A DNA stretch of 64,000 nt from NCBI GenBank assembly GCA_027488935.1, contig JAIYAP010000040.1, positions 124,001 to 188,000 on the forward strand, read 5' to 3'. A program made the position numbers and the translations under genes. Positions 2,592-49,339 of this stretch are shown here, one piece after another. Source of the DNA: Saprospiraceae bacterium. GTDB lineage: Bacteria > Bacteroidota > Bacteroidia > Chitinophagales > Saprospiraceae. Within the stretch, counting starts at the first letter, position 1. Each line of letters begins with the position of its first letter. The notes below the pieces were generated by a model. That model was not told where the DNA came from. It searched no databases and saw nothing but the letters and a program-made list of their open reading frames with translations.

Positions 2592-2751
2592 GGTACGGAC
2601 AGGTCGCGACCTGTCCCTGCCTCGCGACCTGTCCCTGCCTCGCGACCTGTCCCAACACGCGACCTGTCCCAACACGCGACCCGTACGGACAGGTCGCGAC
2701 CTGTCCCAACACGCCGCACACCCGTAGGGACAGGTCGCGACCTGTCCCTAC
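2592..2751. repeat. Array of CGCGACCTGTCC palindromic repeats
   Basis: About seven near-copies of CGCGACCTGTCC in 160 bp, in units of roughly 18 bp with linkers CTGCCT or CAACA. It ends in a perfect 28-bp palindrome (2724-2751; GTAGGGACAGGTCG plus its reverse complement). The array lies between the DUF6600 stop codon and the barrel promoter. The last base of the DUF6600 stop TAG is the first base of the palindrome on that strand, and GTAGGG adds a second stop. The same palindrome family recurs at 22293 and 24021. Confidence 0.9.
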
Positions 2752-15967: not shown

Positions 15968-16582
15968 ATGCAAAACAAATGGATGTTTATCGTTTTAGTT
16001 CTGGCTAATTTATTGTGTTCTTCTTCCTTTAATGCCTTTAGCCAGGAGGCCCGCCTAGTTAATCAAATAAATAATATCAAAACTCCAACCGAAGAAACCA
16101 TGCTGCTGGTGGCCGCGCGCATTACGGAAATTTACCATGCTGATGCCGGTACTGTCGAATCATTTGTACGCGCCGCAGTTCAATTGGAAAGTCGCACAGG
16201 CGTCGCAGCACCCGTAGTGATTGCCATTGCAATCAACGAATCCGGGTTTAGTAGCGAACTGTTTATAAATGCAGGCAATCCGTTTGGCATTAAAGCCAGC
16301 AGCCCCTGGACAGGCAAGACGTATTCAAAATGGCACGACGATGCCGCAACCAAGTTTCGCGTGTATTACTCGGCAGAAGAAGCCATTATTGATTTTGGCG
16401 AATTTGTAAACAGTCGAACCTGGTATGCCGATGCACTCGCTTGTCCCTCAACAGATTATGCATGTATTGTAGATGGCCTGAAAAAAACCGATAATGAACT
16501 GGGTTACAGCCTGAACATGCAATGGGACGAAGTAGTACTCGGGATTATTGAAAAAATGGGACTGGAGGTACTGTCGAAATAA
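15968..16582 (+). CDS. Secreted glucosaminidase-domain (GH73-like) protein
   Basis: 204 residues. Signal peptide about 1-25 (ends NAFSQ). The catalytic domain (about 60-200) matches the FlgJ/GH73 N-acetylglucosaminidase fold: VRAAVQLESRTGVAAPVVIAIAINESGF with a candidate catalytic Glu, then NPFGIKASSPWTGKTYSKWHDD and FRVYYSAEEAIIDFGEFVNSRTWY. It should cleave peptidoglycan glycan strands in the periplasm. Single gene between two terminators. No clear canonical promoter; a CTTTATACGCTTTG sequence at about 15874-15889 is one candidate, which would place the 15907 hairpin in the leader. Confidence 0.85.
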   Translation: MQNKWMFIVLVLANLLCSSSFNAFSQEARLVNQINNIKTPTEETMLLVAARITEIYHADAGTVESFVRAAVQLESRTGVAAPVVIAIAINESGFSSELFINAGNPFGIKASSPWTGKTYSKWHDDAATKFRVYYSAEEAIIDFGEFVNSRTWYADALACPSTDYACIVDGLKKTDNELGYSLNMQWDEVVLGIIEKMGLEVLSK

Positions 16583-16628
16583 AATATGGAGTAAGTCCTG
16601 GGATCAGGGCTTACTCCATATTTTATTT
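16581..16628. terminator. Bidirectional terminator
   Basis: A 20-bp inverted repeat with one mismatch: AAAATATGGAGTAAGTCCTG (16581-16600) and CAGGGCTTACTCCATATTTT (16605-16624), 4-nt loop. It overlaps the end of the glucosaminidase stop codon and serves the convergent gene as well. Confidence 0.9.
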
Positions 16629-21420: not shown

Positions 21421-22296
21421 TTGAATAACCGTCCTCCTGTTCTGCTCGATTGGCTTTTGATGTTTGCCCTGGCCATGATGTGGGGTGCCTCGTTTTTTTT
21501 CATCAAACACGCGGTGCAAATTTTTACCCCGATTCAAATGGCGATTTGGCGGATGGTTATTGCGACCCTCGTTTACATCCCCTTTGCGATCATGTTCTGG
21601 AGTAAAATCGACTGGTCTAAATGGAAACCGTTGGTGGTGGTAGCGCTTTGCGGCTCTGCGATCCCCAATTTGTTCTTTGCCTTCGCCCAACAGCACGTCA
21701 ACAGCAGCCTGGCGGGCATCTTAAATTCTTTGACGCCGCTGTTTACCCTCATTTTAGGCGTTTTATTTTTCAACGCGCATTTCAACCGCAATAAAATTTT
21801 GGGCGTTGCGCTGGGCCTCCTCGGCGCGGCGATCCTGGTGCTTTGGAACGGACAATCCGCCAACGCCGGCAATGCTTGGTATGCGGGTTTGTGTGCCCTG
21901 GCGACCGTTTGTTACGCGATCAATGCCAACAGCGTGGGCTTCAACCTGCAAGGCATGCACCCGGCAGCCATTGGTTCGGCTTCTTTTTTGCTCACGGGAC
22001 CATTTTTTATCGTTGCCTTGTTTGGCACGGATGCCTGGTCGGCCGCTTTTCAAAACCCCGACGGTTGGAAAGCAGTGGGCTATATCTCTTATTTAGGCGC
22101 GGTAGGCACGGTGGTCGGGTCTATCCTGTATTTCCATTTATTACAGCGCACCAGCACGGTTTTTGCCACGTATGTGACCTATTTATTGCCGGTGATGGCC
22201 ATTCTGGTGGGCGCATTTGATGGCGAGGTAATTGGGTTGATGGATGTGGTAGGGACTTTGGTGATTTTGGTTGGGTTGTATTTGGCGCGGCGGTAG
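21421..22296 (+). CDS. EamA/DMT-family transporter
   Basis: 291 residues, begins with TTG at 21421; no better ATG exists before the first membrane segment. Ten membrane segments in two EamA halves: LLMFALAMMWGASFFFIKHAV ... and AATVCYAINANSVGF ... to TVFATYVTYLLPVMAILVGAFDGEVIGLMDVVGTLVILVGLYLARR. Drug/metabolite-type exporter, substrate unknown. It follows nadD by 40 bp. The TAG stop lies inside the palindrome at 22293-22320. Confidence 0.9.
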   Translation: MNNRPPVLLDWLLMFALAMMWGASFFFIKHAVQIFTPIQMAIWRMVIATLVYIPFAIMFWSKIDWSKWKPLVVVALCGSAIPNLFFAFAQQHVNSSLAGILNSLTPLFTLILGVLFFNAHFNRNKILGVALGLLGAAILVLWNGQSANAGNAWYAGLCALATVCYAINANSVGFNLQGMHPAAIGSASFLLTGPFFIVALFGTDAWSAAFQNPDGWKAVGYISYLGAVGTVVGSILYFHLLQRTSTVFATYVTYLLPVMAILVGAFDGEVIGLMDVVGTLVILVGLYLARR

Positions 22297-22340
22297 GGAC
22301 AAGTCGCGACTTGTCCCTACGTGTCGCGAATTGTCCCTAC
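22293..22340. repeat. Stop-codon palindrome GTAGGGACAAGTCG family, plus half copy
   Basis: A perfect 28-bp palindrome (22293-22320: GTAGGGACAAGTCG and its reverse complement) followed by a degraded half (GTGTCGCGAATTGTCCCTAC, 22321-22340). Bases 22294-22296 are the TAG stop of the transporter. It lies between convergent genes and may also end transcription. Confidence 0.92.
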
Positions 22341-24020: not shown

Positions 24021-24055
24021 GGGACAAGTCGCGACTTGTCCCTACTTGTCCCTAC
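24021..24055. repeat. Stop-codon palindrome, third locus
   Basis: GGGACAAGTCG and its reverse complement form a perfect 22-bp palindrome (24021-24042); on the minus strand it is preceded by a duplicated GTAGGGACAA. The outer GTAGGG (24050-24055) provides the TAG stop of the DUF1801 gene at 24052-24054. Confidence 0.9.
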
Positions 24056-47854: not shown

Positions 47855-48154
47855 GGAGGAGTAGGCTTAGGTTCCATTTAACTGTATTTCGCTCAGACAG
47901 GCTGTTCGGAACGGATCAAAGGTATGCCAACAAACAATTTTGAACCGTTTAATTGGAATGCCATTTTGGCGATTGTTATAAGGACTTAAACGATTTGGAG
48001 CATTTACCAATTCCATAGAACCGTTTGGACGGGTTATAATCCCCTTTTCAGTACACTATCATGGCTTTGCACAGAGCTAAAACATCATTTTTGTCATTTT
48101 AAAAATCATTTTATTCAATAATTTGCATTATTTTTGTGCAAATTATTGAATAAA
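47855..48154. other. Intergenic stretch before the DUF4143 ATPase
   Basis: 300 bp without a gene. It holds the -7-like element of the GNAT gene and, at its right end, a perfect 24-bp inverted repeat that reaches into the ATPase gene. Nothing else stands out. Confidence 0.7.
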
Positions 48155-48160
48155 ATGATT
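48104..48160 (+). promoter_or_regulatory. Perfect 24-bp inverted repeat over the ATPase start codon
   Basis: The left arm (48104-48127) begins AATCATTTTATTCAATAATT and the right arm (48137-48160) is its exact complement. The 9-base loop is TTATTTTTG and, with the last bases of the left arm, contains TATTTTTG (48129-48136), a match to the TAnnTTTG -7 element. The ATG of the ATPase (48155-48157) lies in the right arm. Confidence 0.8.
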
Positions 48161-49339
48161 CAAAGACGTATTTTTAAGGAGCTTTTAGCACATCTTGAGC
48201 AACCACAAGTAACGGTAATAACCGGAATGCGCAGGGTAGGAAAGTCTACTGCTGTAAAGTATTTGTTGCAAAATGTACCACATACAAACAAAGTGTACCT
48301 GGATCTTGAACGGGCCGAGTACCGATTTATCCTGAACCTGACAAATTATAAGGATATTGAAATCAACCTGTCCATTGAAGGCATTGATTTTAGCCAACCC
48401 GCAGTAATTGCCATCGATGAGATACAACTTACGCCACAAGCACCCAGTGTGATAAAATACTTGTACGACACCTATCAGGTCAAATTCATCGTGAGTGGTT
48501 CCAGTTCCTATTATTTAAAAAATCGCTTTTCAGAGAGCCTGGCAGGAAGGAAACGTATTTTTGAAATGTACCCTTTAGACTTTTATGAATTTGTAAAATT
48601 TAAAAATCTGGATGCGGACATTTTATTAAAATTTGGAAATCAACCATTTAATCTGAGTTTCTATTTAAAATGGAAAGCACTGTATGAAGATTTTTTGCGC
48701 TTTGGCGGATTCCCGGAAGTCGTAACGGCCACCAGTGAAGCAGATAAACGTTATTTTATTAAAGACTTGGTAAATGCCTATATCGAATTAGACATTCGAC
48801 TGCTTTCTGACTTTTCGGCCTCGGATGATCTCTTAAAGTTGATCCGATTATTAGCAGTTCGTTCTGGCCATCGTGTAGACTATTCTAAACTTGGGGTTAT
48901 CCTTGGGATTAATCGAAACAAGTTAAAAGATTATTTACACTTGCTTCAATACACCTATTTTATTATTCCAGTTACCGCATTTAGCAAAAGTCCTGATCGA
49001 GAATTGAGCAAACAGCAAAAAATTTACCTTTCTGACACTGGAATCCTTCAATATTTAGGTCAAATGAGCAGTGGCCAGATTTTCGAAAATGCGGTAGCCA
49101 TTCAATTGATGCAGCGTGGAAAATTGCAATACTTTCAAAAGTTATCCGGACAAGAAATTGATTTTATCTTGGATGAAACGATTGCATTTGAAGTAAAAGA
49201 AACGCCGGTAGAAGCAGATTTGCATAAATTGAACCAACGCGCAGCACAAATTGGCATTACAGATTGCCGCTTGATCGGAAGGCATCAGCCCACAAATAAT
49301 TTTGAACAGTTTTATTGGGGTGGGAGTTTAGTTGGGTAA
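48155..49339 (+). CDS. AAA ATPase with DUF4143 domain
   Basis: 394 residues from ATG 48155 (TTG at 48134 would add seven residues). Walker A GMRRVGKST (about 25-33), Walker B VIAIDEIQ (about 90-97), sensor FIVSGSSS, then the C-terminal DUF4143 region (about 190-330) with VDYSKLGVILGINRNKLKDYLHLLQYTYFIIPV and a nuclease-like end EIDFILDETIAFEVKET. The family is widespread, mobile and of unknown function. The gene is visibly more AT-rich than its neighbours, which suggests recent transfer. Confidence 0.9.
   Translation: MIQRRIFKELLAHLEQPQVTVITGMRRVGKSTAVKYLLQNVPHTNKVYLDLERAEYRFILNLTNYKDIEINLSIEGIDFSQPAVIAIDEIQLTPQAPSVIKYLYDTYQVKFIVSGSSSYYLKNRFSESLAGRKRIFEMYPLDFYEFVKFKNLDADILLKFGNQPFNLSFYLKWKALYEDFLRFGGFPEVVTATSEADKRYFIKDLVNAYIELDIRLLSDFSASDDLLKLIRLLAVRSGHRVDYSKLGVILGINRNKLKDYLHLLQYTYFIIPVTAFSKSPDRELSKQQKIYLSDTGILQYLGQMSSGQIFENAVAIQLMQRGKLQYFQKLSGQEIDFILDETIAFEVKETPVEADLHKLNQRAAQIGITDCRLIGRHQPTNNFEQFYWGGSLVG

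What the first reader, a model, noticed from the sequence alone, without database searches (positions are those of the whole stretch)
48104..48160. Perfect 24-bp inverted repeat enclosing promoter and start codon of a DUF4143 ATPase
The arms match without error and the loop overlaps a TATTTTTG -7 element, while the ATG lies in the right arm. A transcript starting near 48142 would lack the left arm, so the symmetry most likely acts in DNA, as an operator for autorepression or as a mobile-element end. The gene is AT-rich and looks acquired.
Basis: partly seen in the sequence, partly recalled or inferred. Interest (0 to 1): 0.57.

Follow-up and report, generated by a model that had tools for sequence, protein, structure and literature searches.

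The report
Self-operator palindrome of a DUF4143 ATPase
A perfect DNA palindrome wraps the promoter of an apparently acquired bacterial ATPase gene, and many related genes in several phyla carry differently spelled versions that change together with the protein, so these common but unexplained ATPases most likely control their own genes through private DNA addresses.

Summary
The 24/24-bp inverted repeat (48104-48127 / 48137-48160, spacer 9) is real and the best in the 64-kb window. It surrounds a TATTTTTG -7 box and overlaps the ATG (48155) of an AAA_14-DUF4143 gene matching the phage-defence candidate PDC-S01. Eleven of 14 DUF4143 paralogues here have an inverted repeat scoring 12 or more at their start, mostly with unlike letters. 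Palindrome or direct repeat is enriched over other genes: 32/68 vs 20/388, replicate 21/47 vs 7/117. Direct repeats favour a 31-33 bp period (23/115 vs 3/507). Among 37 genes with at least 50% protein identity (window included), 16 have a strong dyad at one fixed place before the ATG, at most 2 at any other place tested; the arms covary (0 of 2000 row permutations). Upstream similarity rises with protein identity. In Patescibacteria the -35 box lies inside a half-site in 8 of 14. Best reading: a private DNA operator bound by the encoded protein, probably for autorepression. Many family members show no clear repeat; binding is untested. Mobile-element end and RNA hairpin are disfavoured.

The parts
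48104..48127 (+). left arm of the inverted repeat (inner 18 nt, 48110-48127, is the half-site whose place is conserved)
48128..48136 (+). 9-nt spacer; holds the -7 box TATTTTTG at 48129-48136
   Evidence: TAnnTTTG ends at this same place (-19 from the ATG) in 14 of 37 clade genes, next commonest place 4
48137..48160 (+). right arm (inner 18 nt 48137-48154 abut the ATG; the outer 6 nt are the first two codons)
48141..48141 (+). inferred transcription start (TAnnTTTG at -12 to -5); not measured
   Evidence: spacing from PMC9723704 (passages) applied
48155..49339 (+). AAA_14-DUF4143 ATPase gene, 394 aa
   Evidence: Pfam AAA_14 1.8e-29, DUF4143 1.8e-23; PADLOC PDC-S01 1.3e-61; homologues align from this ATG
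48224..48250 (+). Walker A region (G24...K30 T32)
   Evidence: G24, G29, K30 in 90 of 90, T or S at 32 in 90 of 90 subfamily proteins
48860..48994 (+). winged-helix part of DUF4143, residues about 236-280; predicted DNA-binding element
   Evidence: AlphaFold2 models; most listed structural neighbours of the C-terminal half are winged-helix regulators
48995..49336 (+). C-terminal PD-(D/E)xK nuclease-like domain; E334, D336, E346, K348
   Evidence: residues kept in 88, 89, 89 and 88 of 90 proteins; Can2 nuclease among structural neighbours, Z 5.9, 113 aligned, rmsd 3.0

Best explanation
The inverted repeat is a DNA operator private to this gene. A dimer (or higher assembly) of the encoded AAA_14-DUF4143 protein binds the two half-sites through its winged helix, covers the -7 box in the spacer and the transcription start in the right half-site, and so represses its own transcription; the nucleotide state of the ATPase, or a signal it senses, would release it. 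Supported by computation: symmetry, preferred place, promoter overlap, covariation of the two arms, co-variation with the protein, lack of a common neighbour gene. Inferred: that the encoded protein is the binder, that the winged helix reads the DNA, that the effect is repression, that ATP or a ligand gates it.
For: (1) 11 of 14 own-genome paralogues have an inverted repeat of score >=12 in -150..+30, mostly with unlike letters (best shared stretch between paralogue starts mean 8.5, max 12; random gene pairs 7.6, max 12), so one common factor could hardly read them all. (2) Enrichment in two sets: inverted repeat >=14 in 21/68 vs 7/388 and 14/47 vs 5/117; direct repeat >=14 in 14/68 vs 16/388 and 9/47 vs 2/117 (Fisher tests). 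(3) Direct repeats with period 31-33 bp, about three helical turns: 23/115 vs 3/507. (4) In 37 genes with >=50% protein identity, window included, the dyad centre at 23 nt before the ATG has >=11/18 pairs in 16, at most 2 at any other centre from -40 to -15; paired cells 368/666 vs 266 +- 13, 0 of 2000 row permutations. Without the window gene and collapsed at 70% identity (n=20): 6 of 20 against at most 2 at any other centre from -60 to -15; 185/360 cells vs 145 +- 10, 0 of 5000. (5) Upstream similarity rises with protein identity while DNA at -350..-250 stays at 6.9-7.3 up to 70% identity. (6) Promoter overlap in two promoter types: TAnnTTTG at the spacer in 14/37; in Patescibacteria -35/-10-like boxes in 13 of 14 vs 4 of 35 control genes, the -35 inside an ACAAATAGT-type half-site in 8 of 14 vs 0 of 35. 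(7) Largest recurring neighbour family in 8 of 90 loci, within the stored flanks. (8) Winged helix in the protein model.
Against: No binding or expression data. Not universal: 36 of 68 and 26 of 47 genes pass neither repeat threshold; three of the 14 own paralogues score below 12 (L024 9, L028 7, L029 7), one of them (L029 = L002) 56% identical to this protein. In 21 of 37 close homologues the dyad is not strong at the fixed place, though some have one elsewhere. Over all 3905 gene pairs below 80% identity the rank correlation of upstream similarity with protein identity is only 0.23, and by domain it does not single out the winged helix (partial r: C-terminal domain 0.17, winged helix 0.11, AAA 0.09, helical part -0.05). 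Mutual information gave no clean specificity residues. Activation instead of repression is possible.
Confidence: 0.73

Rival explanations
1. The repeat is a binding site of the encoded protein but serves mainly as a target or loading site for its ATPase/nuclease activity (a cutting, replication or self-recognition address); effects on transcription are secondary.
For: Walker motifs and PD-(D/E)xK residues are kept in 88-90 of 90 proteins; fold neighbours include origin-bound Cdc6/Orc1 (rank 1; Z 12.3) and the nuclease Can2; long perfect dyads and 32-bp-period arrays resemble initiator or nuclease sites.
Against: Sites sit on promoter elements in lineages with different promoters and, in the window's clade, at a preferred distance to the ATG; that is expected of transcription control, not of a target site as such.
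Confidence: 0.14
2. End of a mobile element that carries the ATPase gene.
For: Accessory gene in the genus, low GC, homologues on 347 of 72,556 plasmid records and 20 of 50,697 phage records.
Against: No arm copy around the other end (best 16/24); the core is unique in the genome; the preferred distance to the ATG and the promoter box in the spacer are not needed for a transposon end.
Confidence: 0.04
3. RNA hairpin in the leader, acting on translation or termination.
For: Arms are complementary, and in some paralogues (L019, L021) the repeat lies close before the ATG.
Against: In this gene the -7 box lies between the arms, so the left arm should be outside the transcript. Mismatches in 16 symmetric sites show no wobble preference: G-T 11, A-C 11 of 59. 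Direct-repeat arrays at 32 bp are not hairpins as such.
Confidence: 0.03
4. Operator for an unlinked regulator shared by these genes.
For: Cannot be excluded by sequence; the binder was not tested.
Against: Paralogues in one genome have mostly unlike palindromes, while homologues in Bacteroidota, Ignavibacteria and Patescibacteria share half-sites such as ACAAATAGT (20/90 vs 1/248); no other gene family is common to the loci.
Confidence: 0.06

Closest known systems
PDC-S01 (PADLOC phage-defence candidate; AAA_14-DUF4143 ATPases)
   Same: The protein matches PDC-S01 profiles, the best over residues 1-348. [quoted passage not shown]
   Different: The passages seen do not mention cis sites; the private operators are what this report adds.
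SSO1545 / PABY2304 archaeal ATPases
   Same: Best structural matches: 2fna Z 16.6 (264 aligned, rmsd 4.1, 21% identity), 2qen Z 16.5 (265 aligned, rmsd 4.5); tied within 1 Z with a plant NLR, 9qlv Z 16.0.
   Different: The match covers residues 1-303; the C-terminal nuclease-like domain lies outside it.
IniR of mycobacteria (signal-transduction ATPase regulator; PMC5760070, passages seen)
   Same: An ATPase with an SSO1545-like domain that, by the paper's headings and passages, binds a promoter and induces transcription.
   Different: IniR has a separate C-terminal SdiA-like DNA-binding domain and a MalT-like domain and acts on iniBAC; here a winged helix follows the ATPase and the site is at its own promoter.
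Classical autorepressors with dyad operators over the promoter (winged-helix repressors; recalled as a kind)
   Same: Dyad over -7 or -35/-10 boxes; the winged helix resembles ArsR/MarR/CRP types (best E 8.1e-3; Z about 5-6, modest).
   Different: The regulator is itself an ATPase with an apparently intact nuclease motif, and paralogues have mostly their own operator letters.

Membership tests
AAA_14-DUF4143 ATPase family (Pfam) | AAA_14 and DUF4143 profiles above curated cut-off | tested here: met
   102.8 bits (cut-off 27) and 83.5 bits (cut-off 28.1)
PDC-S01 phage-defence candidate | match to PADLOC PDC-S01 profiles | tested here: met
   E 1.3e-61, residues 1-348
PDC-S01 phage-defence candidate | anti-phage activity | not testable with these tools
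   needs plaque assays; PMC12988326 says validation is pending for most such candidates
SSO1545-type / STAND-like ATPase | AAA+ core followed by winged helix with the SSO1545 fold | tested here: met
   2fna Z 16.6, 264 residues aligned, rmsd 4.1; plant NLR and CED-4 rows lie close behind
PD-(D/E)xK nuclease superfamily | D...ExK catalytic residues | tested here: met
   D336, E346, K348 in 89, 89, 88 of 90 proteins
PD-(D/E)xK nuclease superfamily | fold | tested here: inconclusive
   Can2 8bao Z 5.9, 113 aligned; most listed rows match the winged helix instead
Autoregulatory dyad operator | symmetric site over own promoter, at a preferred place in homologues, with covarying arms | tested here: met
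   strong at the fixed place in 16 of 37
Autoregulatory dyad operator | binding by the encoded protein and effect on own transcription | not testable with these tools
   needs gel shift, footprint, reporter
Mobile-element terminal inverted repeat | matching inverted copy at the other end of the element | tested here: not met
   best other match of the arm in 46.5-51.5 kb is 16/24; core unique in genome at up to 3 mismatches
Mobile-element terminal inverted repeat | empty site or target duplication | tested here: inconclusive
   no ATPase match beside the right-flank gene in 4 same-genus genomes, but their loci share no other window gene
Leader RNA hairpin | both arms in the transcript | tested here: inconclusive
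   promoter box lies between the arms, which argues against; the start site is inferred, not mapped

The most novel reading that the evidence does not exclude
PDC-S01/DUF4143 ATPase-nucleases are self-addressed modules: lineages co-evolve a private DNA address (a dyad, or an iteron-like array at about 32 bp) with the protein, and occupancy of that address by an ATP-gated, nuclease-bearing assembly is the sensing event itself. Loss of occupancy (by phage takeover, DNA damage or competition) both derepresses the gene and frees the nuclease, so operator and effector form a one-gene guard system; paralogues in one cell coexist because their addresses are mutually unreadable.
Probability: 0.17. Interest if true: 0.9.

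Novelty: new variant of a known kind. Interest (0 to 1): 0.72.

Why it matters
PDC-S01/DUF4143 genes are among the commonest unvalidated candidate defence genes in prokaryotes (PMC12988326, passages seen). The finding gives many of them a cis-acting partner visible in sequence: a private operator that covaries with the protein. It makes DNA binding directly testable with a 45-57 bp oligonucleotide, suggests how many paralogues can coexist in one genome without cross-talk, and offers a natural set of protein-operator pairs for working out a recognition code.

Tried and rejected
Empty-site test: GNAT and the right-flank protein were searched in 31 same-genus genomes each, own included. Only G347 is syntenic, and it has the gene. 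In the fetched loci of G336, G338, G339 and G341 the right-flank gene is there without a match to the ATPase or any other of the eight window proteins tested, so no border could be drawn.

Other genomic copies of the site: none at up to 3 mismatches over 24 specified bases.

Specificity residues: mutual information on 22 symmetric sites put position 255, in the predicted recognition helix, among the top pairs, but the top columns are scattered over the whole protein; not used as evidence. Domain-wise partial correlation was weak and did not favour the winged helix.

Conserved partner gene: none in more than 8 of 90 loci, ORFs of 80 aa or more within the stored flanks, BLASTP E 1e-4. PDB sequence search: no match at E 0.01. 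NCBIfam: none at E 0.1. C-terminal half by Foldseek: no match at E 0.001.

Literature: 'DUF4143' in 1 paper (passage), 'AAA_14' listing not usable, COG1373 in 7 papers whose titles and abstract starts are on other topics, PF13635/PF13173 in 1 (listing), PDC-S01 in 3 (passages of two seen), guilt-by-embedding in 4 (listing), PABY2304/SSO1545/2FNA/2QEN in 135 with 10 listed (passages of one seen), STAND NTPase terms none, TAnnTTTG in 12 with 8 listed (passages of one seen). What I saw describes no repeats before these genes; the library lacks most subscription papers and holds no bioRxiv preprints.

Limits of the counts: gene starts were the first ATG or the ATG nearest the match; gene calling in scripts was longest-ORF picking; controls are other genes in the same loci and include terminator hairpins of upstream genes. 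The control for periods (507) was not de-duplicated. The best inverted repeat of own paralogue L022 is a GC-rich one about 100-150 bp upstream; a second one (score 13) lies just before its ATG. From the 80 loci, L167 (gene truncated) was dropped; of the 94 genes then pooled, L164 (too little upstream DNA) and three duplicates were dropped. In one search at most 150 pairs per identity bin were sampled. In one search, 49 DUF4143 ORFs were found in 46 of 49 loci and 47 had enough upstream DNA. The 16 genes of the sigma70 count were picked by me and include one Chloroflexi (L185) and one unnamed bacterium (L145); one search gives the 14 Patescibacteria alone.

Full report
Observation. The inverted repeat is as described: arms 48104-48127 and 48137-48160, 24 of 24 paired, 9 nt between. 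It is the strongest inverted repeat in the 64-kb window at loop <=60. The spacer holds TATTTTTG, and the right arm runs into the ATG at 48155 of a 394-aa AAA_14-DUF4143 gene. Using the spacing of the -7 box reported in PMC9723704 (TAnnTTTG at -12 to -5; passages seen), transcription would start near 48141 and the left arm would lie outside the RNA. In G347, a genome of the same genus, the flanks are 93-96% identical and the 57 nt are letter-identical; the protein there is 99% identical.

Other DUF4143 genes of the same genome. The genome holds 14 DUF4143 genes. Scored from -150 to +30 around the start, 11 of 14 have an inverted repeat of score 12 or more, for example 24/24, 23/23 and 26 with one mismatch. 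The letters mostly differ from gene to gene: the best shared stretch between two paralogue start regions averages 8.5 (maximum 12) against 7.6 (maximum 12) for random gene pairs. L028 and L029 score 7 and L024 scores 9.

Controls and replication. In 68 DUF4143 genes of the own genome and its family, an inverted repeat of score 14 or more occurs in 21, against 7 of 388 other genes from the same loci and the window, and in 1 of 1360 dinucleotide shuffles. Direct repeats of score 14 or more occur in 14 of 68 against 16 of 388; either kind in 32 of 68 against 20 of 388. A second set drawn from the class gives 14/47 vs 5/117, 9/47 vs 2/117 and 21/47 vs 7/117 (Fisher tests). The direct repeats are not random in spacing: 23 of 115 DUF4143 genes have one of score 10 or more with a period of 31-33 bp, against 3 of 507 controls. 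This is about three turns of DNA.

The window's own clade. A scan of named genomes with an alignment of 15 close homologues (A1) kept the best 80 of 552 relatives, from Bacteroidota, Ignavibacteria, Chloroflexi, Patescibacteria and a few others, one of them an Asgard archaeon. In the 90 usable genes the best inverted repeat in -120..+30 scores 11 or more in 36, against 14 of 248 neighbouring genes and 0 of 89 stretches at -420..-270 of the same loci; the word ACAAATAGT, a half-site of many of these dyads, occurs in 20 starts against 1 of 248. Restricting by protein alone (50% identity or more to the window protein: 37 genes, window included), the preferred dyad centre lies 23 nt before the ATG: an 18-nt half, a 9-nt spacer, an 18-nt half, then ATG. 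At this centre 16 of 37 genes have 11 or more of 18 pairs; at any other centre from -40 to -15 at most 2 do. The two halves covary: 368 of 666 cells are paired against 266 +- 13 when whole right halves are exchanged between genes (0 of 2000), and positions 6, 13, 15, 16 and 17 from the centre show all four Watson-Crick pairs. Leaving out the window gene and collapsing at 70% identity leaves 20 genes: 6 with 11 or more pairs at this centre against at most 2 elsewhere, 185 of 360 paired cells against 145 +- 10 (0 of 5000), and 385 doubly changed yet paired cells against 186 +- 41 (maximum 299 of 300 permutations). The closest geometric twin, L087/L129 (51% identity), has an 18/18 dyad with the spacer TATATTTTG and other arm letters. 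TAnnTTTG ends at the same place (-19) in 14 of 37, next commonest place 4.

Tracking the protein. The best shared stretch between two upstream regions rises from a mean of 9.3 at 40-45% protein identity to 14.4 at 60-70% and 18.0 at 70-85%, while DNA 250-350 bp upstream stays at 6.9-7.3 up to 70% and 8.4 at 70-85%; in the 5 pairs above 85% both are similar DNA (40.2 and 22.4). Over all 3905 pairs below 80% the rank correlation is modest, 0.23. No neighbouring gene family recurs in more than 8 of 90 loci. The only common partner of the site seen is the gene behind it.

Promoter logic. In 13 of 14 Patescibacteria genes there is a TTGACA-like -35 and a TAnnnT-like -10 at 15-19 bp, against 4 of 35 other genes in those loci. 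In 8 of 14 the -35 box lies inside an ACAAATAGT-type half-site (0 of 35 controls), and in 5 of these the -10 box lies in the inverted half-site. The same type of site is thus laid over two different kinds of promoter, which is what one expects of transcription control.

The protein. AlphaFold2 gives a confident model (mean pLDDT 90). By VIA-align its best matches are the archaeal ATPases SSO1545 (2fna, Z 16.6) and PABY2304 (2qen, Z 16.5), tied with plant NLRs, then CED-4, with origin-bound Cdc6/Orc1 at Z 12.3; Foldseek ranks origin-bound Cdc6/Orc1 first. The C-terminal half folded alone resembles winged-helix regulators (Z about 5-6) and, for residues about 276-394, the nuclease Can2 (Z 5.9); these are modest scores, and Foldseek finds nothing below E 0.001. 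Walker and PD-(D/E)xK residues are kept in 88-90 of 90 proteins. PADLOC files the protein as PDC-S01, a single-gene candidate called the fourth most common defence across prokaryotes (PMC12988326, passages). IniR of mycobacteria is a precedent for a protein with an SSO1545-like ATPase domain that acts on transcription (PMC5760070, passages).

Reading. The simplest account is a self-operator: the protein's winged helix binds the dyad, covers the -7 box and the start site, and represses its own gene. Binding, the sign of regulation and the signal are inferred. The same site could instead, or also, be the target of the ATPase-nuclease; the promoter overlap makes that less likely as the main role. 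RNA hairpin: disfavoured because one arm should be untranscribed and mismatches show no wobble preference (G-T 11, A-C 11 of 59). Transposon end: disfavoured because there is no partner copy.

Results against. Many DUF4143 genes pass neither threshold (36 of 68; 26 of 47). In 21 of 37 close homologues the dyad is not strong at the fixed place. A 56%-identical paralogue in the same genome (L002/L029) has no clear dyad. Correlation by protein domain does not single out the winged helix, and mutual information found no clean contact residues.

Noticed in passing
window 47977-48018: Just upstream of the palindrome lies the end of a nucleotidyltransferase gene (DUF6036, E 1e-5 for the longer copy) of which G347 (L097:2318-2767) keeps more, preceded by a small ORF; the window genome lacks the rest.
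   Followed up: partly
window 2597-2747, 22293-22340 and 24022-24041: A GC-rich palindromic repeat around GGACARGTCGCGACYTGTCC recurs, resembling a REP-like repeat.
   Followed up: no
window 16577-16628: An inverted repeat (24-nt arms, one mismatch, 4-nt loop) at the convergent ends of two ORFs; probably a bidirectional terminator.
   Followed up: partly
L198, L201, L207, L209, L210, L213, L214, L222: A second group of DUF4143 genes has dyads with a GGAAT(T)/(A)ATTCC core and 1-3 nt loop whose outer letters change on both arms.
   Followed up: partly
L244, L047, L063, L080 upstream of their DUF4143 genes: Iteron-like arrays with a period near 32 bp, the units partly palindromic.
   Followed up: partly
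L005/L022 upstream of the DUF4143 gene: An additional GC-rich 19/19 inverted repeat about 150-100 bp before the ATG, probably the terminator of the preceding gene.
   Followed up: no
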